From a virus: a stretch of 27,462 bases of DNA. This document shows, piece by piece, positions 1 to 24,109 of this stretch (positions are counted from its first letter, which is position 1; each line of letters begins with the position of its first letter). The notes below the pieces were generated by a model. The model was given only the letters and a program-made list of their open reading frames with translations, was not told the origin of the DNA and did not search any database. The stretch lies in the IMG/VR virus record IMGVR_UViG_3300030333_001523, positions 1-27,462 of that record; one strand, 5' to 3'. The position numbers and the translations under genes were made by a program.

Positions 1-1037
1 GCATCTACATCTTCAAAGATAATTTCTTTACATCTGCTACGAGACAAATTCATCTCAGCAATTCGTAATCTTGTTGCTACGATTGCAGGGTTCACATCTC
101 CATTAGCAGGGATTCCTGAAACTAGTATTGCAGGGCATAAAGCGTTCCCTGTTTTAGCAGGGTTTGTAGCATCACAAGTGCTTGGTATTGCAGAAGTATT
201 GCCTGCATCTGAACCTGCACTACCTTTATAAATAGCACCTACAGATACGTTTTCAATCTTGATTTCTCGTACAGGTACAGTTCCTAAAGTAATAGCTAAA
301 GTATTCTGTTCTGTCTTTAATACTTTCTCTATTTCCTCTGTAACATTCTTAGCTGTTACAGGAAGTGGTACATCTCTTGGTGCAGAATAAACTCCTGCGT
401 CTCCTCTGAAAAAACTTTTATCAGCAAACACAGTTTGGTCAACTGCTACTGTAGTAGTAGCCACACCACCAACAGCAAGAAAACTGATAGCCATGTTGGG
501 GGAGAATCCCATTTTAGTAAGTAATGAATAAGGCGATTTAAGTACATTGAATGTTGTCTTCCATTTACCTGATTCGGCATTTAATGTTTCGATTTTGTTG
601 ATAAGCCAATCTCTAGCGACAACCATTGCTCTGTATGTTTGAATAATTTTTCGTGGTAGAGAGAAGTAAACTCTTCTAGCTTCAGGTTGTAGTAGCCCTA
701 TAGTAAGCATAGCTACAGAACCAACTAGCGTGTACAACATATTGCTGTACAAAATTGTAGATAAAGTTTCTAACTGTAGTAAAGAAGTTTCTGCTCCACA
801 AGCCGTCACACCTAAGTATGAATAACAATTGTTTACGTAAGGTAATGCATAGGTAAATGGGTTAAGATACGCACTTACTAATCCAACAGCACCCAATAAT
901 AAAAGAGAAATAGTAAATATGTAACTTGCTATCTTGCTAATTATTTTTAAAAACTTTGGGGCTTTAAAATTTTCAGGAGGAAACGTAACGTCTTTACCAA
1001 GTAGTTTAAACAAAACTCTATCTAATCTAGACTTCAT
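1..1037 (-). CDS. Putative membrane-associated phage protein, C-terminus cut by the window edge
   Basis: An open frame starts at the ATG at 1037 and reads at least 345 codons to the window edge without a stop. I do not recognise the family. What can be seen: a basic N-terminus, hydrophobic segments at about residues 35-58 and 98-116 that look membrane-spanning, and a weaker hydrophobic Gly/Ala/Val stretch at about 179-198. After that comes a soluble, beta-prone region with cysteines near residues 289, 301 and 336. Its start overlaps the stop of the preceding 63-codon gene as ATGA, so the two are probably translationally coupled. It follows fibre-type genes at the end of the virion block, so it could be a virion membrane-contact or DNA-ejection protein or a lysis-related protein; none of these is shown by sequence. 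The frame is secure, the function is not. Confidence 0.75.
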   Translation of the reverse strand, partial: MKSRLDRVLFKLLGKDVTFPPENFKAPKFLKIISKIASYIFTISLLLLGAVGLVSAYLNPFTYALPYVNNCYSYLGVTACGAETSLLQLETLSTILYSNMLYTLVGSVAMLTIGLLQPEARRVYFSLPRKIIQTYRAMVVARDWLINKIETLNAESGKWKTTFNVLKSPYSLLTKMGFSPNMAISFLAVGGVATTTVAVDQTVFADKSFFRGDAGVYSAPRDVPLPVTAKNVTEEIEKVLKTEQNTLAITLGTVPVREIKIENVSVGAIYKGSAGSDAGNTSAIPSTCDATNPAKTGNALCPAILVSGIPANGDVNPAIVATRLRIAEMNLSRSRCKEIIFEDVD

Positions 1038-1225
1038 TTTTTGTCTGCCTTTTCTATGGCTTTAACAACTTTCCAATATTTGCTTAAGCCCGTAGACTTA
1101 TCTGTTTTAGAAATCTTACCATCTTTAACTGTTGCTTTTAAAGCATTAGCTAATTCTAGTAACTCAGGTAAACAATCTGAATACTCTTCTATATAATCAT
1201 ACTTACATTTTAATAAGCAAACCAT
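1034..1225 (-). CDS. Small hypothetical protein (63 aa)
   Basis: This short protein of unknown function has an acidic middle (YIEEYSDCLPELLELA) and a Lys-rich C-terminus, consistent with a compact helical protein. The start is well supported: a strong Shine-Dalgarno sequence GGAGG lies 6 bases upstream of the ATG at 1225. The stop overlaps the start of the downstream membrane protein gene (ATGA), which suggests coupled translation. Similar small helical proteins before membrane genes in phages can be lysis or chaperone accessory proteins, but there is no motif here to support a specific role. Confidence 0.7.
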   Translation of the reverse strand: MVCLLKCKYDYIEEYSDCLPELLELANALKATVKDGKISKTDKSTGLSKYWKVVKAIEKADKK

Positions 1226-10923: not shown

Positions 10924-11796
10924 TTATGAAGTTGCTAAGTCACCAATTTCAAATTGTACTGCTGCACCTCTAGTGTCATCTAATTCAAAAACACCATAGT
11001 CTGCTGTCATAACAATTTCTGTTGCTCTAAGTGATGCATCTCTTTGTCGCTCAGTTCTAGTGTCAACACTAGTAAGTGCTGCTAACGCAGTCTTATCAGC
11101 AATAACACCATAACCTGAGTCAACGCTTCCAGTCTTTTCAATGTTTCCATCTTCAAAAATTGGAACACCATTAATTGGTCGCAATCCACTATAGAAGTTA
11201 GACAACAAATCTGCTGACCAACCTGAAGAAATTTCAGCATTGTTACCTGCAGTTGTTGCTGCTTCTTTAGATAAAGTTGCTATAGCATTTGGATGGTGAA
11301 CAATGTACAACTGAGAACCAAATTTATTTGCTTTTGCATTAGAAATGATTGCGTGTACGTTAGCAGCAGTCATGCTTCTGCCGTCTGCTCCAAGAGCAGT
11401 ACCACTATTCAAACCTGTGTAAAGAGCAATAACATCAGTATCTTTCTTTCGAGCCATACCATCACCTAACTGTCTTCCAATAATTGAAAAGACGTTATTA
11501 GCTGATTGCCTTACAAGTTTGTCTGTAAGAATAACTTTTGCACCAACCTCACTGGCTGTAAGGTCTACAGTAGTCATTCCAATATCTTCTTCATCAATGA
11601 TGTCTACTCCATCTTGTAAGTCACTCATTGACATTGTTCCTACTTTAGGAACAGTTACTGTCTTAGCACCTTTTGGCAAACTAAATTGTTCGATAAGGGC
11701 TAAAGCAGGGGCGTTGTGCTCTTCTGTGTATCGAGCAGAACTAATGATAATTTTTTGGGCATTTTCTAAATTACCCGTTGTGGCTGTTTGTGCCAT
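10924..11796 (-). CDS. Major capsid protein, HK97-fold type (290 aa)
   Basis: The protein forms the capsid shell. Evidence: location directly after a scaffold-like gene, a length of 290 residues typical of small HK97-fold coat proteins, and composition with an N-terminal helix (IISSARYTEEHNAPALALI). A beta strand with VTVPKVGTMSMSDL follows, then an E-loop-like acidic segment (VDIIDEEDIGMTTVDLTAS). A long spine-like helix runs VFSIIGRQLGDGMARKKDT. An A-domain with KFGSQLYIVHHPNAIATLS and GLRPINGVPIFEDGNI completes it, and the C-terminus is a strand (GVFELDDTRGAAVQFEIG). GAGG lies 9 bases before the ATG at 11796. No fused protease or decoration domain is seen. Confidence 0.85.
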   Translation of the reverse strand: MAQTATTGNLENAQKIIISSARYTEEHNAPALALIEQFSLPKGAKTVTVPKVGTMSMSDLQDGVDIIDEEDIGMTTVDLTASEVGAKVILTDKLVRQSANNVFSIIGRQLGDGMARKKDTDVIALYTGLNSGTALGADGRSMTAANVHAIISNAKANKFGSQLYIVHHPNAIATLSKEAATTAGNNAEISSGWSADLLSNFYSGLRPINGVPIFEDGNIEKTGSVDSGYGVIADKTALAALTSVDTRTERQRDASLRATEIVMTADYGVFELDDTRGAAVQFEIGDLATS

Positions 11797-12669: not shown

Positions 12670-15600
12670 TTAAGGTACTGCAACACCAGTAGGCATAAAC
12701 ACATTAGGAGGTCCATATAAAGAAGCATGGTAGGCTTTAGCTTGAGGTGTAACACCTCTATAAAAATCCCCGTACCAATAAGCTAAAATAAAATCTAAGT
12801 TGCCACCTTCTCTAGCATCATTTATTACAACTTGTTTACGTTGATTGTTACGCAATGTATTTAAAGTTTTTAAATACGGGTATTGTTTTTCTAAATTATA
12901 CCTATCTTGTGTAGACCCGTTTATATATTCATTCCAAATAGCTAATATTTGAGGATTGTTGGCTGCAGCAGGATATAGTTGACTTAAATCTTTACCAGCA
13001 TCCCAATACTCTTTCATGTATTGGCTTGATTTAATATACGACTTTTCTGTAGCTGTATCATTTTTACTTAACTCAGCACTAAAAGCTGCATAAACTCCAT
13101 CATTTAAAGTTTCAGAGTTTACTCTAAGTGCTTCTACGTATTCATTTCGTGCATTAAAAAAAGCATCCCAATTTGCAGAATCAGGATTTTCTGAATCAAT
13201 TTTTATTTCGTAATAACCTGCTAATAACAAGTCTACTTTGTTTCTAATATCATCTATTTGACCTGCATCATTATACATTTTTGCATAATACGCTTCCCTA
13301 ATACTGTCTTCAGCGTTTTGTATAGAATATTCATAAACTTCTCCTATACCTAATTTAGCACCTTCATATTTTAAATACTTTTTAGAACGCTCTTCTCTCC
13401 ATTCTTTAGGAGTAATACCATCTTTTTTGTTCCCTTCATACCAAGCTAATAGTTTAGAGTCTGATTTTTGTTGGTCAAAAAGTAATTCTTGTCTAACTTT
13501 AGAAGCAACAACACCTGCTTGCTTAGTTTGTTTTACTGAAATTTCAGGAAATGCTTGCTCTGCTCTTCTACGACCAGCTTGTAACAATGCTCCTCCACGT
13601 TCAGGATAGAAAGAATTTTTTAATCCTTCAATAAAAGGTAATTGTTTTTTGTCAGGTTCTCTTAATTCTTTTTGAAACTCTTCATATTCTTCAGGAGTTA
13701 AAGACAATCTAAACTCAGCACGCTCTAATCTATTCATATTTCTAAACTCAGCAACTTTCTGAGCCATAGGTCTATCTTCTAACCCTCTAAGTTCTTCAAA
13801 GGTTTGATATGTCCAATCAGCCATATCTGAAACTAATTGCCCTACGCTTCCAAATACACTGTCATATAAGTGGTTTAATCTATCAGGACTAGAAACTATG
13901 TTATCTATTAACTCTCCACCTATAGGAACATCTTCAACAGGAAGTTCTTCTATAACTCCTGCAAGTTCTCTAATAGTTTTACTAGTTCTTCTAGTGTATT
14001 GCTCTTCTAATGGAGCATCTTCATCTTCTACTATTTGAGATTGTCTCCATGTATCAAAGCCAGTTAACTGTTCACCAGCTACGTTAAATACTTCAGGCAT
14101 AGGTAATTCATTAATTGGGAATGTTGACTTCCAAACTTCTTTACCCCATGCAGCTTTACTAAAATTAGCATCTTCGTCACTGTTTTCTGATAAGAAAGTT
14201 ACTGCACCAAATACAGTGTTCCACTCACGTAATCTGTGAGGAATTACTATATATTGTGGTTTAGGTCTTTGAGTAACAGGGTCTAATATGTGTTCTCCTG
14301 CTTCATCTCTTTTAGGTGGAAGCATAAAAATAAGACCGTTGTATCTAATGTATTCAGGAATATCGTAATACAGTGCTTTACCTTCGTATTCAAATTGTTT
14401 ATTCCAACCTTCTTGAATAGCCCAGTAACTGTATATTGCTCCCCCTATATACATTGATGCTTGTTTAGGACCCATAACTTCTTTAAGTCCTCGACCTGTA
14501 GCACCTCTAGCTTCCCTATACCCTAATCCAAATGTTAAAGGAGATACGGTTCCATTGTTAACAGATTTAGCATATTTTTTAATTTGTTCATCTACGCTAC
14601 CAAATTCAAACAATGGTCCATTAGGCACTGGGTCTTTAACTGGTCTAACTACAGGATGTAAATCAATACCTAATGTTCTGAAAGGAACTTTAAAACCTTC
14701 AGCAGCAGCATTTAAAAATAAAATATAATTATTCCAATCTCTAATTTGCCAGCCACCTTTATAGAAATCTAAAGTAGCATCAATACTGTTATCTGCAGCC
14801 CTTTGTGCAAAATCCCAATCCATTAATCCTTTAGGAGTATCTCCTGAAATTCCACCTTTCCATTCTTCAGTAAGTTCTTTGTAAAAATCTTCTTTTGATA
14901 ACTTCATTAAACGGTTCATTTCTGCTTTACCGTTTATTCCTAATTCATTTAATTGTTTTATAAATGATTTTCTAGCTACAGCTAAACGTGGTGCAGCTTC
15001 AAATGCACCACCTACTGTAGGCATAAAGTTTTTAAATTGATTAGTTAAACTATTTTTTAATTCTTTTTCTATTTGATTGGTGCCACCTGTAATTAGTATT
15101 GCACCATCTGATTGTCCTGCATCTCTAAATTCTTTTATCATACGTCTTTGTACAGAATTTAAATTTATATATCCTTGTGTACCTGAAGACCATCCACCTA
15201 GCCGTTCCATTAACTCAACAAAGTTATCTTCTTTGTTAAAAAGAATTTTGTTAAAACTACGACCTAACTCTCCAACTACTTTATCAGGAGTAACACCTGC
15301 TCTAAATTGAACAGTAAACATATCTATAATTGCGTTACGAACCCAAAACAAAGGGCTATAAGTAGTAAACACAGACCTAAACCAACCATTGCTAGCAGCA
15401 ATCTTAGCTAAGAATGCATTTTCTCCAACTGCTAAATATCCATGTCTGCCGTTAACTTCTTGCCAAATATCTTTAGGTACAGGTTGATTATCTCCTAACC
15501 CACCAAATACTTTTCGCTTACCATTTTCATAGTAAACAAAATACCCAGTACCGTTTGCAGGTTCAGGAATTGCTTTAAGAAGAGCACCGTCTTCATCAAT

Positions 15601-18327
15601 ATAAATATCAGTTAAATCTTTAAGAACTTGTCTGTCTGCATCATAGTTAAGTAATTCAACTATTGTTTTTGTTGTTTTGTTAGATTCTGCTCTGTATTCT
15701 GCCCGTATTGCCTGTAATGTTAAAGAATCAAAATCTAAAGGATTACGTCTACCTAAAGCAGTTTTTATATTATTTGAAAGAGCCATAACTCCATCATCTA
15801 ATACAGAAGTATCTCTTAAATTAGGTTTTACATTATATCTTTGAGTTCCAGCAAACTCTATGTACTCAGTAGGAGTATACCAATCATAAAATTCTTCCCA
15901 ATGTTTTAATTGTTCTTGACTAATAATTCCTGCATTTGCAAGCCTAGTTCTTTGTTCAGCATAAAATGTTTGAACACTTTTAGCCATTTTTTCTATTGCA
16001 TCTACTTGTTCATCAGTATAGTTATAAGTATTTTTAATCCATGTACGGTCATCAAATTGATACAAGTTGTCATCTGTAATTTGAATATCAAACTCACCTG
16101 TTTCAGGGTTTTGCATATTAGGGTTTTCTCTTTTCCCCGGTACAAATTTTTTCCCTGATTCTTCTGCAAGTTTTTGTCTAGCAAGTTCTTTTCTGTTAAA
16201 AGCATCTTTAATATTTTTTAATGTTTTAACCATTACATATTGATTTACTACTTCAAGGTTAACATTAGATTTTTTTAGTTCAGGAAGTATTTGACCTTTA
16301 TATAAATTTATAACTCTAATATTTGCTTTTTGTCCTGCTTTATCTGCCCATCTGTGAAGATTGTCAGCAACATTAACAAATTCTTTTAATGCTAATTGAC
16401 CTCCCGATAAACTAGACCTATATAAATTATTTACATATTGTCTAATCATTTCACCTTGGTTCCAATACTTACTAATACCTCTAAGGTAAGAGTCTGCAGT
16501 AGGTCCTAAAGTATTAGGAAATAATGCTCTTATAGTTTTAGAAAGTATGTTAGGTCCATTAGAACCTAATTTATTTGTAGTTGCATTAACTTCCCCTTTA
16601 GATATATCTTTTTCTACATTAAACAAACCATCATCATCAGGAATTTCTGATTTAATTTGTTCATACACTTCAGGTTTCATTTCTGCCTGACTAGGAACTC
16701 TATTAACATCAGGTTGGTCTAAGTCAAATCTAGGTCTAGGATTTAATTGGTCTCCAAATTCGTAAATGTCTCCATAATCAGGAGCAAATGGAATAGTCGT
16801 ATTAATAGGGTATCTATTAGCAGCAATGGTTTCTACTGGAATTTCATCAACTGCCTGTAATGCTTCAAAATCATCAACTACTTTTTTAATATTGCCACTA
16901 GATATTACTGAAACTTTTTCTATAGGGATTCTTTGGTCAGTTGCAGCAATAATTTCTTGACCTGCTTCTCTAGTATACCAACCATCTGCATCATCAAACT
17001 TAATTGCAAGTAAATAAGTGTCATCTATATTATTTACAGCACTAAACCAAGGTTTTCCTGAAGCATTAATTCGTTGTTCAGCGTTCCATCTAGGGTCTAA
17101 ATATCCGTATTCTAATCCACGCCTGTACTCTGCAGCATCTACTACTCTATATAACTGTTCAGGAGCAGATGAAGGTGCAGGTTCATCCATTATAGCCATT
17201 CTTAGTTTTTGTTCAGCAGTCGGCTTAACACGTACTTCAAAACCCGGTCTATTTATGTTTGCACTCCGAAAATTTTTTCCTTTTTCTATTTCAAAAGTCT
17301 TAACAGAAACAGGTATGTCACGACCTGCATTTGGAAGTTGCATTTGTTGTTCAGCATATTGCTGGTCCATGTAACCACCGGGTCGGTCCATTTCATCAAT
17401 CTCTGCTTGGCTTCTTCTTGCTGCTGCTGTATCCCCTCTTGTTCCATCATCATATCTTGGGTCATCAGCTTCAAGTTGCCTTATTCGTTCAGCTTCATCT
17501 ATAGGAGTTGCTTGAGTTGTTGGACTTTTACGACCTCCTAGTGCACGAAATGGTGCTGTAATTGCTCTTTCTGCTGCTCTTTCTGCTGCAGCTATTGGAG
17601 TTAATCCAAGTTCAGTTGCACGCAATCCTGCTCGTAGTGCTGGGTTGTTAGCTGCTGTTGCACCAACTCTTGCTGCTGCTGCTGCTCCACGTATTGCTCC
17701 AGCAGATGGTATTGCAAAGTATGGTGCTTCTTCTGCTATTCCTCTAGCGTAAGGAAGAGTAGGGTATAATTCTTGTCCTATTTCTCTACGTTGTTGCTCA
17801 GAAACAATTTCACCTGTTTCTCTTTCTATTTGTGCAACTTCTCTATCTGTAGCTTCACTTCTTCTAGTTTTTGCTTGCCACGGTTCAGGAATATTAAGAC
17901 CTTCTAATACAGTTCCTGCTATTGCTCCTACAGGATTAATATTCATAAATTGGTCAAATGCACCAGCCGGAGAAAACTTTCCTTCAGGTGTTACATATTG
18001 GTCAACATTAGGAACCATTCTTCCTTCAGTAAATCTACTAATTGGTCTATACCAAGGAGACTGTTCAGTTACACCTTCATTTAATTGCCATGTTGCAGGT
18101 ATTGTTTCTATAGCTTGATTTACAAACGGTTGAACTACACGCCCATGAACAAAATTTAAACCAGCCCCCAAGCCTTGTAATGTAGGCATAACTCCGGGAA
18201 CTTGAGCAATTCCACTACCTGCTGCTCGGGCAGCAGGAAATAAATACTCTTGGAATACAGTGGGGTCTGCTGCAGGTTCTTGAGTGTCAGGGAAATAATC
18301 CCATTGATGCCACCATGTGTGGGGCAT
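12670..18327 (-). CDS. Giant polyvalent-type virion protein with ART-like and LPD38-like regions (1885 aa)
   Basis: A single uninterrupted 1885-codon frame starts with TAATG overlapping the stop of the 114-aa gene. Residues 1-260 are Ala/Gly/Pro-rich with hydrophobic stretches at 200-260; 265-340 is probably a flexible linker. Residues about 390-480 resemble an ADP-ribosyltransferase-like fold: LYRVVDAAEY (R394), YGYLDP, an aromatic-Ser strand GKPWFSAV (F428, S429), and GQEIIAATDQRIPIEKVSV with E458. Residues about 590-900 are charged and helical. Residues 978-1010 (GWFRSVFTTYSPLFWVRNAI, then IDMF) match my memory of the LPD38 domain of large polyvalent proteins (Pro-x-Phe, RN, then Asp). The rest to 1885 is helical. 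It is probably carried in the capsid and injected with DNA; T4 Alt is a precedent for an injected ART. The size also fits a T7 gp16-like internal protein. ART and LPD38 calls are unverified. Confidence 0.6.
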   Translation of the reverse strand: MPHTWWHQWDYFPDTQEPAADPTVFQEYLFPAARAAGSGIAQVPGVMPTLQGLGAGLNFVHGRVVQPFVNQAIETIPATWQLNEGVTEQSPWYRPISRFTEGRMVPNVDQYVTPEGKFSPAGAFDQFMNINPVGAIAGTVLEGLNIPEPWQAKTRRSEATDREVAQIERETGEIVSEQQRREIGQELYPTLPYARGIAEEAPYFAIPSAGAIRGAAAAARVGATAANNPALRAGLRATELGLTPIAAAERAAERAITAPFRALGGRKSPTTQATPIDEAERIRQLEADDPRYDDGTRGDTAAARRSQAEIDEMDRPGGYMDQQYAEQQMQLPNAGRDIPVSVKTFEIEKGKNFRSANINRPGFEVRVKPTAEQKLRMAIMDEPAPSSAPEQLYRVVDAAEYRRGLEYGYLDPRWNAEQRINASGKPWFSAVNNIDDTYLLAIKFDDADGWYTREAGQEIIAATDQRIPIEKVSVISSGNIKKVVDDFEALQAVDEIPVETIAANRYPINTTIPFAPDYGDIYEFGDQLNPRPRFDLDQPDVNRVPSQAEMKPEVYEQIKSEIPDDDGLFNVEKDISKGEVNATTNKLGSNGPNILSKTIRALFPNTLGPTADSYLRGISKYWNQGEMIRQYVNNLYRSSLSGGQLALKEFVNVADNLHRWADKAGQKANIRVINLYKGQILPELKKSNVNLEVVNQYVMVKTLKNIKDAFNRKELARQKLAEESGKKFVPGKRENPNMQNPETGEFDIQITDDNLYQFDDRTWIKNTYNYTDEQVDAIEKMAKSVQTFYAEQRTRLANAGIISQEQLKHWEEFYDWYTPTEYIEFAGTQRYNVKPNLRDTSVLDDGVMALSNNIKTALGRRNPLDFDSLTLQAIRAEYRAESNKTTKTIVELLNYDADRQVLKDLTDIYIDEDGALLKAIPEPANGTGYFVYYENGKRKVFGGLGDNQPVPKDIWQEVNGRHGYLAVGENAFLAKIAASNGWFRSVFTTYSPLFWVRNAIIDMFTVQFRAGVTPDKVVGELGRSFNKILFNKEDNFVELMERLGGWSSGTQGYINLNSVQRRMIKEFRDAGQSDGAILITGGTNQIEKELKNSLTNQFKNFMPTVGGAFEAAPRLAVARKSFIKQLNELGINGKAEMNRLMKLSKEDFYKELTEEWKGGISGDTPKGLMDWDFAQRAADNSIDATLDFYKGGWQIRDWNNYILFLNAAAEGFKVPFRTLGIDLHPVVRPVKDPVPNGPLFEFGSVDEQIKKYAKSVNNGTVSPLTFGLGYREARGATGRGLKEVMGPKQASMYIGGAIYSYWAIQEGWNKQFEYEGKALYYDIPEYIRYNGLIFMLPPKRDEAGEHILDPVTQRPKPQYIVIPHRLREWNTVFGAVTFLSENSDEDANFSKAAWGKEVWKSTFPINELPMPEVFNVAGEQLTGFDTWRQSQIVEDEDAPLEEQYTRRTSKTIRELAGVIEELPVEDVPIGGELIDNIVSSPDRLNHLYDSVFGSVGQLVSDMADWTYQTFEELRGLEDRPMAQKVAEFRNMNRLERAEFRLSLTPEEYEEFQKELREPDKKQLPFIEGLKNSFYPERGGALLQAGRRRAEQAFPEISVKQTKQAGVVASKVRQELLFDQQKSDSKLLAWYEGNKKDGITPKEWREERSKKYLKYEGAKLGIGEVYEYSIQNAEDSIREAYYAKMYNDAGQIDDIRNKVDLLLAGYYEIKIDSENPDSANWDAFFNARNEYVEALRVNSETLNDGVYAAFSAELSKNDTATEKSYIKSSQYMKEYWDAGKDLSQLYPAAANNPQILAIWNEYINGSTQDRYNLEKQYPYLKTLNTLRNNQRKQVVINDAREGGNLDFILAYWYGDFYRGVTPQAKAYHASLYGPPNVFMPTGVAVP

Positions 18328-18671
18328 TAGAAATAAATAAACCTTGTACTAGGAGCATATCTTCTTGTTGACATACCTTTTTGTGCAGGAGTTAATCTGC
18401 CGTATCTTTCAGTAAAAGGTTGCCTAGATAAGAAGTCTGTAAACGTAGTCATTTTTGACGGGTCAGTTCTGTTCATTAACTCTCTACCTTTAACCCCTAA
18501 GTATTGGTCATAAACATTACCAAATTGCCCAGCAAAATAATCACGTGGTGCTTGACTAGCACGGTCTCCCGTTCCAAAAGCCTGACCTATTGCACCTAAG
18601 TATGCAGTTTGTGGGTCAGTCTCTAGCATAGTTTGATAGTAATCATCAAATGCGTTCATTCCATTTGCCAT
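18327..18671 (-). CDS. Small hypothetical virion-region protein (114 aa)
   Basis: A 114-residue protein with an acidic helical N-terminus (FDDYYQTMLETDPQTAYLGA), a Gly/Gln middle (AFGTGDRASQAPRDYFAGQF), and a basic C-terminus (MSTRRYAPSTRFIYF). It lies between the 665-aa and 1885-aa proteins, one base after the former's stop region, and its own stop overlaps the start of the giant protein (TAATG). Its last residues resemble the GGYQPAYGRYLL-like segments of the preceding 665-aa protein in being Arg/Tyr-rich. The three may act together inside the capsid, by analogy with the internal core proteins of T7-like phages; this is an inference from order. Confidence 0.65.
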   Translation of the reverse strand: MANGMNAFDDYYQTMLETDPQTAYLGAIGQAFGTGDRASQAPRDYFAGQFGNVYDQYLGVKGRELMNRTDPSKMTTFTDFLSRQPFTERYGRLTPAQKGMSTRRYAPSTRFIYF

Positions 18672-18672
18672 A

Positions 18673-20670
18673 TTACATTCCTCCCATAGCTACTGGATTA
18701 AATGCTGTACTTATAAAGTCAGCAAATCTACTAGCACCTTGTGGTCCATATTGAGTTTGATACAAATCAAATATGTTTCCTAAGTTTCGGGCACCTCTAT
18801 CACCTAACGCTCTGTTTCCTAACGCAGCTAATGATGCAGAAACTATTTCACCTTGTGTTGGTTGAAGCCCAAATGTTGCTGCATATTGTGGGTCAGAAAT
18901 AGTTTGCCCACCTAAAGAAGCTAAATAGTTTTGTAATCCACCAAAAGAACTTCTTATATCTTCTAGTCCTCTTCGTTGACCACTTTGCAAATATTCTCCA
19001 AATCCTCCACCTTGCGTACCCATTCCAGTAACCATTGGTAAATTACCACTAGCTTGATTTAATAAATATCTACCATAAGCAGGTTGGTATCCACCGTATA
19101 AATTAGCACCTGCTAAAACACCTATTGGAACTTCTCCGATTTGTCTTGCCCTATAACGCCTAAAAGCGTCTGCCGGTTCTAAACTTAAATCATATGCTTG
19201 TTGACCTAATCCTGTCATAGCCCCTGCACTTCCTAGCCCACCTGCATACGCACTAGGTGTACTTGCTACAGCACCTGCACCTGCAGGAATAGGTTGTGTT
19301 GCAAATACTCCTTCTTCAGCTTGTAAATCTACAGGCTCACCTGCAGGAGAAACTGGAGCAGGAACTGTTGGAGCAGGAACTATAGTAGAACCTGTTGCTC
19401 TTACTCCTCCATAATCTTCTGAAAAATCAGCAGGAGCAGGAGTAGTAATAGCATCTTGTTGTGCTTTTGCTGTTCCAGCTTCTGTTGATATTTTTGGAAC
19501 ACGTTTTTTAGTTGGTCTTATTATTTCTCCATTAGGTCCATAAGTTACTACTTCTCCATTTTGAAATGTAAAACCTTGTGGTATACGACCTTCTTTTAAA
19601 AACTGTTCATTTGCAGCATCTACTTCATTTTGCAAATTACCAATATTTTCAGTTACTGATTCAGGTACATCACCTGATTCATCAAATTCTTGTGTAGTTG
19701 CAAGTTGTTCTGCAACTGTCACAGGAACTGGAGTTACTGTAGTGTCAGGAACAGGTAAACGTGTTCTTACTCCACCAGTAGCATCATCTTCCATTGAAGA
19801 AACAACAGGAGCAGTTGCTATAGGTATTTGTGGAATAACAGGTTGAACTCCACCTAATCGGTCAAGTTCAGCTTGACTTGCTGCTATATTAGCAGCAGTT
19901 ACTGCATTAAGGTAAGAACCATAATCTCCTGAAGCGTAGTCAATAAAATCTTGAGTTGCTTGTGAAACGATTCCTTTAGCTGGTTCAACAAACCCGTAAG
20001 CTGCTGCTGTAGCAGCATCAACAGGACCTAAAGGTCCTATATCTGCTGCTGGACCTAATGGAGAAGTGCCAACTGGCACTCCAGCAGCTATTTGATTTTG
20101 CGTATTTCTTAAATTTCTATAATAATTTGAAGAAGATGTAATTTGTTCAGGCGTGTAACCACCTGCTGCTAAAGCCCTAGGGTTCATTAAATCTGCTTCA
20201 GGAATTAAATTTGCAGGAGGTGTACCTATTGCGTTCATTAATCTTAATTCTGCATCACTAAATTGATAACCAACACCGGGAGCCACATAATCAGACGGTA
20301 ATAAAGGACCATATTGTTGATTCCCAAATGCGTAAGCGTTTTCTATTGGAGTAGAAGCCCCTACTGGAATACCACTTAAATCTAAACCTTGATTAACTGG
20401 AATTGGTGGAGGTGTTACTTGAGTTTGACTTCCAACATCACCTTCATAATCAGTAAAAGTATTTTGACCTATTCCTAATTGTTGATTAATAAACCTGCCA
20501 AAAGCATTAGAGTCAGTAGGTCTTCCCCCTGTCATATTAGTAAATTGAATAATTAATGCTCTTTGTTGGTCAACTGGTAGTGCAGAAAATGCTGCACTTT
20601 GAGAGTACATAAATGGTATTTCATTTAATTGCGTATCGTCATACATACCGTGTCCAATTTGATGTGGCAT
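18673..20670 (-). CDS. Pro/Ala/Gly-rich virion protein of unknown function (665 aa)
   Basis: The first 70 residues are ordered-looking (PVDQQRALIIQFTNMTGGRP, FGRFINQQLGIGQNTF). Residues about 85-480 are largely low complexity with Pro/Ala/Thr/Val-rich linkers (TVTPVPVTVAEQLA, TIVPAPTVPAPVSPAGEP). The last 170 residues have repeated short helices rich in Gly, Gln, Tyr and Arg (EPADAFRRYRARQIGEVPIG, AGANLYGGYQPAYGRYLLNQ). No enzyme motif or membrane span is seen. It abuts the portal gene on one side (TAAATG) and the 114-aa gene on the other. A capsid-internal or ejection protein is the best guess. The alternative, a long assembly or length-determining protein, lacks the expected coiled coil. 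Confidence 0.65.
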   Translation of the reverse strand: MPHQIGHGMYDDTQLNEIPFMYSQSAAFSALPVDQQRALIIQFTNMTGGRPTDSNAFGRFINQQLGIGQNTFTDYEGDVGSQTQVTPPPIPVNQGLDLSGIPVGASTPIENAYAFGNQQYGPLLPSDYVAPGVGYQFSDAELRLMNAIGTPPANLIPEADLMNPRALAAGGYTPEQITSSSNYYRNLRNTQNQIAAGVPVGTSPLGPAADIGPLGPVDAATAAAYGFVEPAKGIVSQATQDFIDYASGDYGSYLNAVTAANIAASQAELDRLGGVQPVIPQIPIATAPVVSSMEDDATGGVRTRLPVPDTTVTPVPVTVAEQLATTQEFDESGDVPESVTENIGNLQNEVDAANEQFLKEGRIPQGFTFQNGEVVTYGPNGEIIRPTKKRVPKISTEAGTAKAQQDAITTPAPADFSEDYGGVRATGSTIVPAPTVPAPVSPAGEPVDLQAEEGVFATQPIPAGAGAVASTPSAYAGGLGSAGAMTGLGQQAYDLSLEPADAFRRYRARQIGEVPIGVLAGANLYGGYQPAYGRYLLNQASGNLPMVTGMGTQGGGFGEYLQSGQRRGLEDIRSSFGGLQNYLASLGGQTISDPQYAATFGLQPTQGEIVSASLAALGNRALGDRGARNLGNIFDLYQTQYGPQGASRFADFISTAFNPVAMGGM

Positions 20671-22515
20671 TTATGCACCTCCTGTAGGTGGAACTAATCC
20701 TATATTTTCTAATCTAGTTTGCGTACTTTGACCTCCGGGTCTTGGAGTTCCGGGAGGAACTGAAGGACCTACTGGAGCCGTTGGAGGAACTGGTGGTACC
20801 CCAAGTGCTGCATCAGGCATTACTTGAGGTGGTAATCCGGGAGGTCCACCACCTTGAGGTGGCATTGGTGCCCCCTGACCCATTCCCTGTGGTTGTTGGC
20901 TTTGTGCCATTAGTTGAGCACGTTCCATGCTCTTCATCATAAACACATTCATCAACTCGCCCCTATAAAATTCTACCAAATCATCTCTGCCTTGTCTTTG
21001 TGCTGCCTGTAACAGTGTCCATAACTGTGCTTCAGGCAAAACTTTTTCGGCAAGTTGTACTCTGATAGAGTCTTCCATAGAGTCTGCTGACTGCAAACCA
21101 AGTATTTTATCTCGTATAAATATGTCAGGTAGTAGTGGAGTTTCACCTTCACGTGCTATCTGAGCCATGCTCATCTTTGACATATCGTCTTGTGGTAGTT
21201 GTCCGATAAAGTCTACTTCGACATCACCAGCATCACGTATAGTCTCAGGAGTAATTTCTTCTGAAAAATACATTCTGTTTTTATCCTGACCACTAAGTTC
21301 CATAGCTTTAAATGCACCAGTAACATACTGGTCACATAAGTGGTGGAACATACTTCTATAACATTTTTCTAATGCAATTAGTCTAGGAGCAAGTACAGTT
21401 TCAACACCTTGACGCAAAGTATTTATTGCGAATCCTGATAATTGAAATTCTAATTGCCCGTATATAGAGTGTGGTAATCCACCTCTTTGCATTTCGCCTG
21501 AGATTAATCCCATAAACACGCCTGACTCTCTAGCCATTTCCAGTAATCCTAGTGGCTCTACGTCTTCGCCTTGTCCTAATGCAATCTCAGAACCTTCCTT
21601 GTATGGGTCTTCTTCCAGCGTTTTAGTTCCATCACGTGACCTGACTTTAAGTCCTTGTCTACGTGAACGTGCTGTAAGTTCAAGCATCACACTCATCATA
21701 AAGTTGTGCTTTTCAAACAAATCACGGGAAGACTTATAGCAAGATTCACCATAGTCTTCTACGGTATCTAAGTTTCCTGACTCTGATATTGCCTGTACTA
21801 GAGGTTGTGCTCCTACAGGTCCAATAACTACAGGTACTTTGTCAGAACCATGTTTAGTTCTTTTCTTTAAAATAACTGTATCGGTACAAACTATATTATC
21901 TTCAGAATCAAAGAAGTCATATATATCTATACCGTCATCATCATCAGGACCCATGCCTTCGCCTTCTACCTCTACACCATATATAGCTTTAATTTCTGTA
22001 GGAGTTTTCTTAGTCTTGTAACAAGCCCAAGCTAAACCGTTAGGTCCTTCTCCCCAATATGTGTGGAGTGGGTCCCAAGGTTGTATATCTACATAAGTAT
22101 CGCCTTCTTTATTCTTTACAAGCGTTGCTCTTACTGCATACCAACCACGTAAAGTAATGTACCAAGATAGCTGTGCTTTTACAGTAGGTTGAAACCTAGC
22201 TGTTACTCTATCGTCAGCACTTTTAAGTAATCCTATTAGGAATCTTTCTTTAGCATCATTGTTTTCCCTTTGCTCTCTTTCAGCATTGTTGTAGGGAACA
22301 CGCACAACCATCTCAGATGTAGTCATCCAAGAAATAAGTTTGTCTGCGTATACTTGTGGTTCGTTAGATGTGTAAGATTGATATCCCTCTCCTGCATCAA
22401 ACTCTTCGAGTCTGTACAGTTTGTGGTCATCATCCATTCTTGTACGTAAAGGTTCAGTCAATTCATAGTGATTATCGACTAAAGCCGTTATTTCTTCAGG
22501 TTTGTAGTTAGCCAT
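20671..22515 (-). CDS. Portal protein (614 aa)
   Basis: The portal forms the dodecameric vertex through which DNA is packaged. Evidence: immediately downstream of the large terminase (stop and start abut, TAAATG), 614 residues, and the expected layout. An N-terminal helical region (ITALVDNHYELTEPLRTRM, YTSNEPQVYADKLISWMTTS) precedes a body with WYITLRGWYAVRATLV and VDIQPWDPLHTYWGEG. Helical stem/crown regions follow near residues 250-420 (YKSSRDLFEKHNFMMSVMLE, LSGFAINTLRQGVETVLAPR). The final 70 residues are Pro/Gly/Gln-rich and probably disordered. No fused MuF-type head protein is seen. The assignment rests on gene order plus overall character. Confidence 0.85.
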   Translation of the reverse strand: MANYKPEEITALVDNHYELTEPLRTRMDDDHKLYRLEEFDAGEGYQSYTSNEPQVYADKLISWMTTSEMVVRVPYNNAEREQRENNDAKERFLIGLLKSADDRVTARFQPTVKAQLSWYITLRGWYAVRATLVKNKEGDTYVDIQPWDPLHTYWGEGPNGLAWACYKTKKTPTEIKAIYGVEVEGEGMGPDDDDGIDIYDFFDSEDNIVCTDTVILKKRTKHGSDKVPVVIGPVGAQPLVQAISESGNLDTVEDYGESCYKSSRDLFEKHNFMMSVMLELTARSRRQGLKVRSRDGTKTLEEDPYKEGSEIALGQGEDVEPLGLLEMARESGVFMGLISGEMQRGGLPHSIYGQLEFQLSGFAINTLRQGVETVLAPRLIALEKCYRSMFHHLCDQYVTGAFKAMELSGQDKNRMYFSEEITPETIRDAGDVEVDFIGQLPQDDMSKMSMAQIAREGETPLLPDIFIRDKILGLQSADSMEDSIRVQLAEKVLPEAQLWTLLQAAQRQGRDDLVEFYRGELMNVFMMKSMERAQLMAQSQQPQGMGQGAPMPPQGGGPPGLPPQVMPDAALGVPPVPPTAPVGPSVPPGTPRPGGQSTQTRLENIGLVPPTGGA

Positions 22516-23865
22516 TTACCAACGCCTTACACTGATTGTCTTATTTTCAGTCACGTATCCGTAACCATACCGATTTATTATGCCATATATTACAGCTTTT
22601 ACACCGTGGTTGTATCTATCCTCCGGTGTATTTCCTACAATATTACCATCTCTATCTGTTTTCCACTTATAAGCACGGCTTTGCCCGTCAAAAGGATTAG
22701 GATGTACACCTAACTCAGATAAAATCCCTTCACATTTAGGGTTAAAGACTATTCTAGCATCTCTTTGTTCTACAGGGTCAGTCTTTAAAAAGGCTTTTAG
22801 CCTTTCAGTTCCTTCATTTATTCTGATTTTTTGTGAATCAAAATAAATTCCAGTCTTCTCTAGCCACACTTCTGCAGGTGCAGCCATAGCCTGATGCTGA
22901 TAACCTGCAATATCTATCACTCCAAACTGTGCATCCTTCCACCAAGGTCTGCTTTGAGCAATATCTATAATGTCATCTGTGACTAAGTTACGCTCATATA
23001 TCTCATCAATGACTCTTATTTGGTCATTTACAATTTGGACTATTTCGCAAGCATACGCTTCAGAATATCCGGGGTCAATCCAAATATGCACAGGAATATC
23101 GGGTTCATACTCAACATCTTGTATGTGAATGTCAGGTCTTACCTCATTAAACACAAGCCCTTGTGGTGGTGAGGGTATACCTTCTATACGTTCCATAAAG
23201 AAATCGTCAGAAGCAGCTTGTTCCAGTGCTAGTATTTCAGGGTCTTCCCTGCCACCGGGGTACAAATACTGGTTGGAGTAGCTTGGTAAAGAGAATGCTT
23301 GTTCATCTTTACTTGAAGTATGTTTCCATGCCTGATACATTTGTGGGTACCAGCCTAGTGAGCCTTCAAACGTACCAGCTAAAAACAGCCAACCACGTTT
23401 AGGTGCACATCTTCCACGCAATCTATTAAAAGTTTCTAAGTCTAACTGACTAGCTTCGCAACCAATTATTCCATTAGGTGCTCTCATAGCTAGAGTTCTA
23501 GGGTCTTTTGCAGATTTAGTTTCTATACGAGTGCCGTCTGCAAGTATTATCCTGCCGGGGTCTACACGTTTAGTGGATTCTGCCAGTAGTCCTAACTCAG
23601 AAAAGTCTTGTACTAGGTATTCAAACTCTGCTCTAGTCCTTTCGTAGTCTGCAGCGACCAGCCAATAGAGACCGGGCTCGTCATTTTCTAGGAATCTAGC
23701 AAGTAAATACTTAGAAGCTACCATAGATTTGCCAGCTTGTTCACCACCAGCTACTAGGATAAATCTTTTTCGGGAGGACAGTATAGGTTTTTGGAGTTCA
23801 GTAGGAGAGAAATTTATTTTCTCGTATATGTAATCAGCAATTTCATTAATATTCGCAATCGCCAT
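22516..23865 (-). CDS. terL: Terminase large subunit (449 aa)
   Basis: This is the ATPase-nuclease of the packaging motor. Numbering from M1 at 23865: the Walker A motif is GEQAGKS (41-47), preceded by an adenine-binding-like QKPILSSRKRF. The Walker B-like strand is GIIGCEASQ with E137 as catalytic glutamate. A coupling motif LAGTFEGS lies at 162-169. The RNase H-like nuclease part has D264 (IWIDPGY), D287/E288 (VIDEIYE) and D318 (GVIDIAG). The 449-residue length is normal. An in-frame ATG at 23883 would add six residues and overlap the upstream gene further; the later ATG gives a 20-base overlap. The small terminase lies two genes upstream and the portal is directly downstream. All key residues appear intact. 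Confidence 0.92.
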   Translation of the reverse strand: MAIANINEIADYIYEKINFSPTELQKPILSSRKRFILVAGGEQAGKSMVASKYLLARFLENDEPGLYWLVAADYERTRAEFEYLVQDFSELGLLAESTKRVDPGRIILADGTRIETKSAKDPRTLAMRAPNGIIGCEASQLDLETFNRLRGRCAPKRGWLFLAGTFEGSLGWYPQMYQAWKHTSSKDEQAFSLPSYSNQYLYPGGREDPEILALEQAASDDFFMERIEGIPSPPQGLVFNEVRPDIHIQDVEYEPDIPVHIWIDPGYSEAYACEIVQIVNDQIRVIDEIYERNLVTDDIIDIAQSRPWWKDAQFGVIDIAGYQHQAMAAPAEVWLEKTGIYFDSQKIRINEGTERLKAFLKTDPVEQRDARIVFNPKCEGILSELGVHPNPFDGQSRAYKWKTDRDGNIVGNTPEDRYNHGVKAVIYGIINRYGYGYVTENKTISVRRW

Positions 23866-24109
23866 TGTAAACTTCGGACACATAAGTTGGTGTGCCCTCT
23901 CCCATATGACTTCCTAAAACATTATATTCAAAAAATTCATTTGCTTCTTCTGCTGTCATATCATCTTCTAACACAAATATCTCAATAATTTTATCTACCG
24001 AGTAAACAATCGTGTTGTCTTTCGCATTTATTCCTAGTATCGCAGAAGAAAACTTATCTCTTTCTAAGGAATCCCCACCTAAATACAACCTATCTTCAGA
24101 ATCAATCAC
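23846..24109 (-). CDS. Conserved small phage protein between terminase subunits (87 aa)
   Basis: Starts with GTG at 24109, overlapping the small-terminase stop by 8 bases, and ends 20 bases into the large-terminase frame. The sequence has a beta N-terminus (RLYLGGDSL, FSSAILGINAKDNTIVYSVD), a helix (DMTAEEANEFFEYN) and the block VLGSHMGEGTPTYV. The EEANEFFEYNV...GEGTP block resembles a small protein family widespread in phages and often found near terminase or replication genes; this is recognition from memory and the function is unknown. Tight overlap with both terminase genes suggests its amount is linked to theirs. Confidence 0.75.
   Translation of the reverse strand: MIDSEDRLYLGGDSLERDKFSSAILGINAKDNTIVYSVDKIIEIFVLEDDMTAEEANEFFEYNVLGSHMGEGTPTYVSEVYNGDCEY

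What the first reader, a model, noticed from the sequence alone, without database searches (positions are those of the whole stretch)
12670..18327. Giant injected-type protein that may combine an ADP-ribosyltransferase-like domain with an LPD38-like region
Seen: one uninterrupted 1885-residue frame between the portal and scaffold genes. It has an ART-like segment at about residues 390-480 (R394 in LYRVV, an aromatic-Ser strand at 427-429, E458 in GQEIIA) and an LPD38-like segment near 978-1010 (SPLFWVRN followed by ID). Known: polyvalent phage proteins combine effector domains and are thought to enter the host with DNA; T4 Alt is an injected ADP-ribosyltransferase. Inference: this phage may deliver a host-modifying enzyme inside its largest virion protein. 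The usual R-S-ExE signature is incomplete (Gly two residues before E458), so it could be a divergent or inactive fold.
Basis: partly seen in the sequence, partly recalled or inferred. Interest (0 to 1): 0.75.

Follow-up and report, generated by a model that had tools for sequence, protein, structure and literature searches.

The report
Cysteine-free giant phage injection protein
This marine phage gene encodes a very large virion protein of a family that phages most likely thread through their tails into bacteria; members of the family, this one included, have almost no cysteine, whereas the toxin-like enzyme suspected inside this copy could not be confirmed.

Summary
The 1885-residue frame is real, on the minus strand (12670-18327). 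Its C-terminal half is a divergent member of the LPD38 polyvalent family. Pfam places LPD38 at residues 1320-1511.

The ART part is not supported. Residues 387-475 are a real shared module: a 199-aa protein of an Alishewanella phage is 36% identical there. Of R394/S429/E458, only R394 is kept in that relative. No Pfam, PDB-sequence or profile test finds an ART, and the AlphaFold model is uninformative. ART-PolyVal does precede the same core in several relatives.

The stronger result is cysteine avoidance. This protein has none in 1885 residues. LPD38 giants from 79 viral contigs have 22 in 207,753 residues, against 0.77% in other large ORFs of the same loci; their shared core has none in 67,150. 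Proven ejection proteins of T7, N4 and P22 behave the same way (1 in 7,864). One LPD38 giant, JC1 gp69, was found in purified virions. I conclude it is an ejected virion protein: a conserved delivery core with fast-evolving N-terminal cargo. N4 polymerase is the published precedent; I found no report extending the rule to LPD38 giants.

The parts
12670..18327 (-). Giant LPD38-type protein, 1885 aa, zero cysteine; proposed virion-packaged, ejected protein
16888..17169 (-).
   Evidence: 36% identity, E 5e-9, to WGH49662 of Alishewanella phage; no ART profile support
13762..16263 (-). Delivery core, residues ~689-1522 (collinear with the core of LPD38 giants)
   Evidence: HMM of 13 giants: E 6.5e-18, pieces 689-819 (weak) and 1175-1522; HMM of 37 further cores: 775-819 and 986-1118 (weak), 1387-1513
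15322..15366 (-). Conserved TxxPxFxxRNxxRD motif (here TTYSPLFWVRNAIID, residues 988-1002)
14695..14718 (-). Counterpart of the conserved FLNARxQG motif (here FLNAAAEG, residues 1204-1211)
13795..14370 (-). LPD38 domain, residues 1320-1511
   Evidence: PF18857 E 2.3e-13, 51.1 bits against cut-off 27
18327..18671 (-). 114-aa protein, zero cysteine; proposed small member of an ejection trio
   Evidence: position, size and composition only
18673..20670 (-). 665-aa protein, zero cysteine; proposed middle member of an ejection trio
   Evidence: position, size and composition only
20671..22515 (-). Putative portal (614 aa, 5 Cys)
   Evidence: position only; no family hit
22516..23883 (-). Terminase large subunit
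   Evidence: phrog_2 E 1.6e-19; tblastn to phage terminases
11827..12621 (-). Putative scaffold (264 aa, zero Cys)
   Evidence: position and composition only
10924..11796 (-). Major capsid protein
   Evidence: PF25209 E 1.6e-10; phrog_267

Best explanation
The gene encodes a giant virion protein that is packaged in the head and threaded through the tail into the host at infection. Shown: the C-terminal half is the LPD38-family core; the protein and its orthologues contain no cysteine; the family is almost cysteine-free; the N-terminal third evolves fast while the core is under strong constraint. Inferred: the core (~690-1520) is the packaging and delivery chassis, the N-terminal ~640 residues (with the 387-475 module) are cargo that acts on the host, and the 114- and 665-aa neighbours are the other two ejection proteins of a T7/N4-like trio. 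Cysteines are probably excluded because the chain must pass the tail unfolded and refold, where a disulfide or mispaired thiol would be fatal.
For: LPD38 E 2.3e-13; collinear core match E 6.5e-18; conserved motifs. Zero Cys in 1885 aa, P about 1e-6 at the rate of the other window ORFs, also zero in L001 and L002. Sixteen LPD38 giants incl. the window: 3 Cys in 38,258 aa against 0.90%. 79 IMG/VR giants: 22 in 207,753 aa; 29 representatives below 50% identity: 11 in 82,809. Core 0 in 67,150 and cargo 22 in 140,603, against 334 in 43,148 in other ORFs of at least 500 aa. Positive controls: T7 gp14-16, N4 gp50-52, P22 gp7/16/20 together 1 Cys in 7,864 aa, while their portals and tail proteins carry cysteines. 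LPD38 giants occupy the slot after internal virion protein B in SAR11 podoviruses. JC1 gp69 is in CsCl-purified virions, 51 unique peptides (PMC9144972). dN/dS about 0.05-0.15 in 961-1520, higher in the N-terminus. [quoted passage not shown]
Against: No proteomics of this phage. Window capsid and scaffold are also cysteine-free, so for short proteins the signal is not specific. The 114- and 665-aa genes have no detected homologues outside the orthologous contigs. The core model has no relative in the PDB, so no shared fold with T7 gp16 or N4 vRNAP is shown. Family members are homologous, so the 79 giants are not independent counts.
Confidence: 0.78

Rival explanations
1. One reading: residues 390-480 are an active or recently active ADP-ribosyltransferase delivered by the giant protein, like T4 Alt.
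For: Order of motifs (R394, W-F-S, E458) and length fit loosely. The only distant relative lies in an Alishewanella phage array next to a Pfam ART-PolyVal gene (E 2.1e-11). ART-PolyVal sits just upstream of the same core in L053 (341-508), L060 and others.
Against: S429 and E458 are not conserved in the relative. No Pfam, NCBIfam or credible PDB hit; hhalign scores against ART-PolyVal and the array proteins lie among decoys; an ART-PolyVal HMM made from copies in LPD38 giants finds nothing there. AlphaFold pLDDT 37. Between window and L001 the segment has 6 nonsynonymous and 0 synonymous changes and a 6-aa indel.
Confidence: 0.2
2. The giant is a structural head protein (internal scaffold or portal-associated core) that stays in the particle; low cysteine is only the usual bias of virion proteins.
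For: It is encoded between putative portal and scaffold; window capsid and scaffold also have no cysteine.
Against: Large non-giant ORFs of the same loci have 0.77% Cys and T7/N4/P22 portals and tail proteins have cysteines. Relatives carry enzyme cargo such as methylases, helicases and ARTs, which makes little sense for a retained scaffold.
Confidence: 0.15
3. Cysteine absence is a by-product of composition or codon bias with no link to ejection.
For: None found; AT-rich marine genomes vary in cysteine use.
Against: The depletion holds within each genome against its own other genes, in phages of hosts from Bacillus and Escherichia to Pelagibacter and cyanobacteria, and in GC-rich Burkholderia.
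Confidence: 0.03

Closest known systems
LPD38 / DarB-like polyvalent giants (e.g. Burkholderia phage JC1 gp69, Vibrio phage 1.232.O, E. coli phage PTXU04)
   Same: LPD38 domain, P.F..RN motif and collinear core, giant size, zero cysteine, late-gene location
   Different: Window copy is divergent (core E about 1e-17 to the family profile), lacks the methylase/helicase cargo seen in JC1 and 1.232.O, has a long C-terminal tail after LPD38 and lies between putative portal and scaffold
LPD38 proteins of SAR11 podoviruses (HTVC034P gp44, Lederberg EXVC029P gp8)
   Same: LPD38 core; third gene of a cysteine-free small/medium/giant trio
   Different: Those are 1229-1254 aa without recognised cargo and lie after the tail tubular genes next to internal virion protein B
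Bacteriophage N4 virion RNA polymerase (gp50)
   Same: Giant ejected protein without cysteine, in a trio with 150- and 644-aa proteins that are also cysteine-free
   Different: No polymerase domain found here; the LPD38 core model has no fold relation to any PDB chain
T7 gp16 (internal virion protein D)
   Same: Equivalent slot in T7-like SAR11 relatives; zero cysteine
   Different: No sequence or fold similarity detected; no lysozyme domain found
ART-PolyVal (PF18760) in LPD38 giants
   Same: Relatives L053, L060, L062 have it N-terminal to the same core
   Different: Window segment does not match the ART-PolyVal profile

Membership tests
LPD38 phage polyvalent proteins (PF18857) | LPD38 domain above Pfam gathering score | tested here: met
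   51.1 bits against 27; orthologues 55 bits
LPD38 phage polyvalent proteins (PF18857) | Collinear upstream core with P.F..RN and FLNA motifs | tested here: met
   weaker than in other members, FLNARxQG is FLNAAAEG here
LPD38 phage polyvalent proteins (PF18857) | More than one recognisable functional domain in the chain (polyvalent) | tested here: inconclusive
   No second Pfam domain; the 387-475 module is shared with another phage but unnamed
Phage ejection (internal virion) proteins | Present in purified virion | not testable with these tools
   Only by homology: JC1 gp69 in virions (PMC9144972)
Phage ejection (internal virion) proteins | Leaves the virion and enters the cell envelope or cytoplasm | not testable with these tools
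   Inferred from cysteine avoidance and gene context
Phage ejection (internal virion) proteins | Cysteine-free or nearly so, as in T7, N4 and P22 | tested here: met
   0 in 1885 aa; controls
T7 gp16 / N4 vRNAP homologues | Shared fold or sequence | tested here: not met
   Core model of relative L062 (pTM 0.84) has no PDB match, best E 0.78; no PDB sequence match
ADP-ribosyltransferase superfamily | Profile match to a known ART family | tested here: not met
ADP-ribosyltransferase superfamily | Conserved catalytic triad (R/H - S/Y - E/D) in homologues | tested here: not met
   Only R394 conserved in the Alishewanella relative
ADP-ribosyltransferase superfamily | ART fold | tested here: inconclusive
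   AlphaFold pLDDT 37.4 with three near-identical rows

The most novel reading that the evidence does not exclude
The LPD38 core is a dedicated delivery chassis with a fold not represented in the PDB. Phages fuse interchangeable effectors to it, and nearly every cargo so carried is purged of cysteine. Cysteine absence in a long phage protein would then be a general sequence signature of passage through the tail, allowing the injected proteome of uncultured phages to be read from genomes.
Probability: 0.55. Interest if true: 0.75.

Novelty: new member of a known kind. Interest (0 to 1): 0.55.

Why it matters
Which phage proteins enter the cell with the DNA is known for few phages and is normally settled by proteomics or microscopy. 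A cysteine-free rule that holds in proven ejection proteins (T7, N4, P22) and in about 95 LPD38 giants gives a cheap genomic test. The precedents I found (N4 polymerase, Zobellviridae proteins) noted it for single groups. The well-predicted ~830-aa LPD38 core with no PDB relative is also a concrete target for structure work on how large enzymes pass a narrow phage tail.

Tried and rejected
ART by Pfam, PHROG, NCBIfam, PDB profile and hhalign: no support. AlphaFold of residues 370-512: pLDDT 37, discarded. More relatives of the ART-like module by degenerate DNA patterns in IMG/VR and GTDB genomes: only the two known orthologues; all other hits were chance, out of frame or unrelated. tblastn hits of the Alishewanella relative to an Aeribacillus and a Synechococcus phage (E 2-4): rejected as chance. 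ART-PolyVal in Bacteroidota genomes gave 2 of 296, too few for a control profile; replaced by copies inside LPD38 giants. Cys background from ORFs of 100-300 aa (1.6%) was not used for the main comparison, since short ORFs include spurious frames.

Full report
WHAT IS THERE. The frame at 12670-18327 is real, 1885 codons, ATG start, on the minus strand in the late gene block. Order of transcription: terminase large subunit (phrog_2), putative portal, 665-aa protein, 114-aa protein, the giant, putative scaffold, major capsid protein (PF25209). Portal and scaffold are named by position only. The record is a 27.5-kb viral contig; two orthologues (97% and 95%) lie in IMG/VR contigs, and the one examined has ORFs of the same order and near-identical sizes.

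THE LPD38 CLAIM. Pfam LPD38 matches residues 1320-1511 (E 2.3e-13). In ten LPD38 giants aligned over their C-terminal ~850 residues (A3), the segment TxxPxFxxRNxxRD holds several invariant positions and lies upstream of LPD38; the window has TTYSPLFWVRNAIID at 988-1002 and FLNAAAEG at 1204, the counterpart of FLNARxQG. An HMM of 13 giant cores matches the window at 689-819 (weak) and 1175-1522 (E 6.5e-18 overall). A second HMM, of 37 IMG/VR cores, gives collinear pieces at 775-819 and 986-1118 (both weak alone) and 1387-1513 (overall E 3e-11 for 1e5 sequences), and nothing for the reversed sequence.

THE ART CLAIM. The named residues exist. The segment 387-475 is homologous (36%, E 5e-9) to the C-terminal part of a 199-aa protein of Alishewanella phages Slicko01 and Slickus01. 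That gene is one of seven in a row with a common N-terminal stretch like MKIDxLYESxLxE; its upstream neighbour is a Pfam ART-PolyVal (E 2.1e-11). This is suggestive context. But R394 alone of the three named residues is kept in the relative. No ART profile recognises the segment, hhalign scores to ART-PolyVal and to the array proteins lie within those of decoys, and an ART-PolyVal profile made from copies within LPD38 giants gives nothing there. AlphaFold with three near-identical rows is uninformative (pLDDT 37.4). I therefore do not file it as an ART; the fold is open.

CYSTEINE. The giant contains no cysteine; at the rate of the other window ORFs (0.73%) the chance is about 1e-6. Its orthologues have none either. 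Distant LPD38 giants proved the same: JC1 (3224 aa examined) and Vibrio 1.232.O (2899 aa examined) have none. In 16 giants from phages of Vibrio, Escherichia, Burkholderia, Achromobacter, Aeromonas, Thalassomonas, Bacillus, Bacteroides, Pelagibacter, a cyanobacterium and an uncultured source there are 3 cysteines in 38,258 residues, all in the Bacteroides phage. In 79 giants from IMG/VR there are 22 in 207,753 residues; 66 have none. In 29 representatives below 50% identity, 11 in 82,809. The C-terminal core has 0 in 67,150 and the variable N-terminal cargo 22 in 140,603, while other ORFs of 500 aa or more in the same loci have 334 in 43,148 (0.77%). The cargo matters most, because it consists of unrelated domains (methylase, helicase, ART, MuF-C, ParB, pyrophosphatase), so common descent does not explain its depletion. 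The 80 loci are the best of at least 586 and are redundant, so the counts are not independent.

CONTROLS. Proven ejection proteins: T7 gp14/15/16 have 1/0/0 cysteines, N4 gp52/51/50 none in 4,294 residues, P22 gp7/20/16 none in 1,309, whereas most portal, tail, spike and terminase proteins of the same phages have about 0.3-1.5%; scaffolds and the N4 capsid protein have none. In SAR11 podoviruses the LPD38 giant is third in a cysteine-free trio that starts with internal virion protein B. The window has the same kind of trio (114, 665 and 1885 aa, no cysteine), though in another order and place and without detected homology of the two small members. Caveat: window capsid and scaffold also lack cysteine, so the test has power only for long chains.

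DIRECT EVIDENCE IN A HOMOLOGUE. JC1 gp69, an LPD38 giant, was identified in CsCl-purified virions with 51 unique peptides (PMC9144972). The polyvalent-protein paper lists LPD38 as found only in phage-type proteins and proposes packaging and injection (PMC5512222).

STRUCTURE AND EVOLUTION. AlphaFold of a family core with 37 aligned sequences is confident (pLDDT 83.6, pTM 0.84), mostly helical. Foldseek finds no PDB chain (best E 0.78, TM about 0.1) and, in BFVD, many phage polyvalent proteins. The model is of a relative (L062), not of the window protein. Among the three window-type orthologues dN/dS is about 0.05-0.15 in residues 961-1520 and clearly higher in the N-terminal third, including 385-485: a conserved chassis with fast cargo.

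MECHANISM. Shown: family, core, cysteine absence, rate gradient. Inferred: packaging, ejection, cargo role, trio. Proposed reason: a chain that must pass the tail unfolded and refold cannot risk disulfides or thiol cross-links. The depletion in a Bacillus phage (0 in 1679) suggests that periplasmic oxidation in Gram-negative hosts is not the only cause.

NOVELTY. Cysteine absence is published for N4-type virion polymerases (PMC2784036 citing Kazmierczak 2002; PMC3715699; PMC3915230) and Zobellviridae proteins (PMC10747016). Searches of the held library found no extension to LPD38 or DarB-like giants, nor a general rule; subscription literature is not covered. The window protein itself is a new, divergent member of a known kind.

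Noticed in passing
L004:3167-8200 (Alishewanella phage vB_AspM_Slicko01, record 86525-91558): Seven consecutive genes share a short N-terminal stretch like MKIDxLYESxLxE and have 2 cysteines in 1656 aa. One is a Pfam ART-PolyVal, four share FHxT...FFLSTAR...ExEDRI, resembling ARTs. Possibly an undescribed array of tagged, ejected effectors.
   Followed up: partly
L028:9983-13606 (Pelagibacter phage HTVC010P): The LPD38 giant of HTVC010P is annotated as several shorter ORFs, whereas HTVC034P and Lederberg have one frame; sequencing frameshifts or a decayed gene.
   Followed up: no
window 16963-16968; L001: Orthologue L001 has a six-residue in-frame insertion in the ART-like segment just before E458.
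   Followed up: no
L040-L119, ORF directly upstream of the giants: The ORF just upstream of LPD38 giants is itself cysteine-free in 46 of 67 cases (0.34% Cys overall), so it may be another ejected protein.
   Followed up: no
L060, residues 326-662 of its giant: Two tandem ART-PolyVal domains directly upstream of the LPD38 core.
   Followed up: no
L090: Exceptional LPD38 giant with 8 cysteines in 2988 aa, none in its core; may carry cargo that tolerates or needs thiols, or reflect another delivery route.
   Followed up: no
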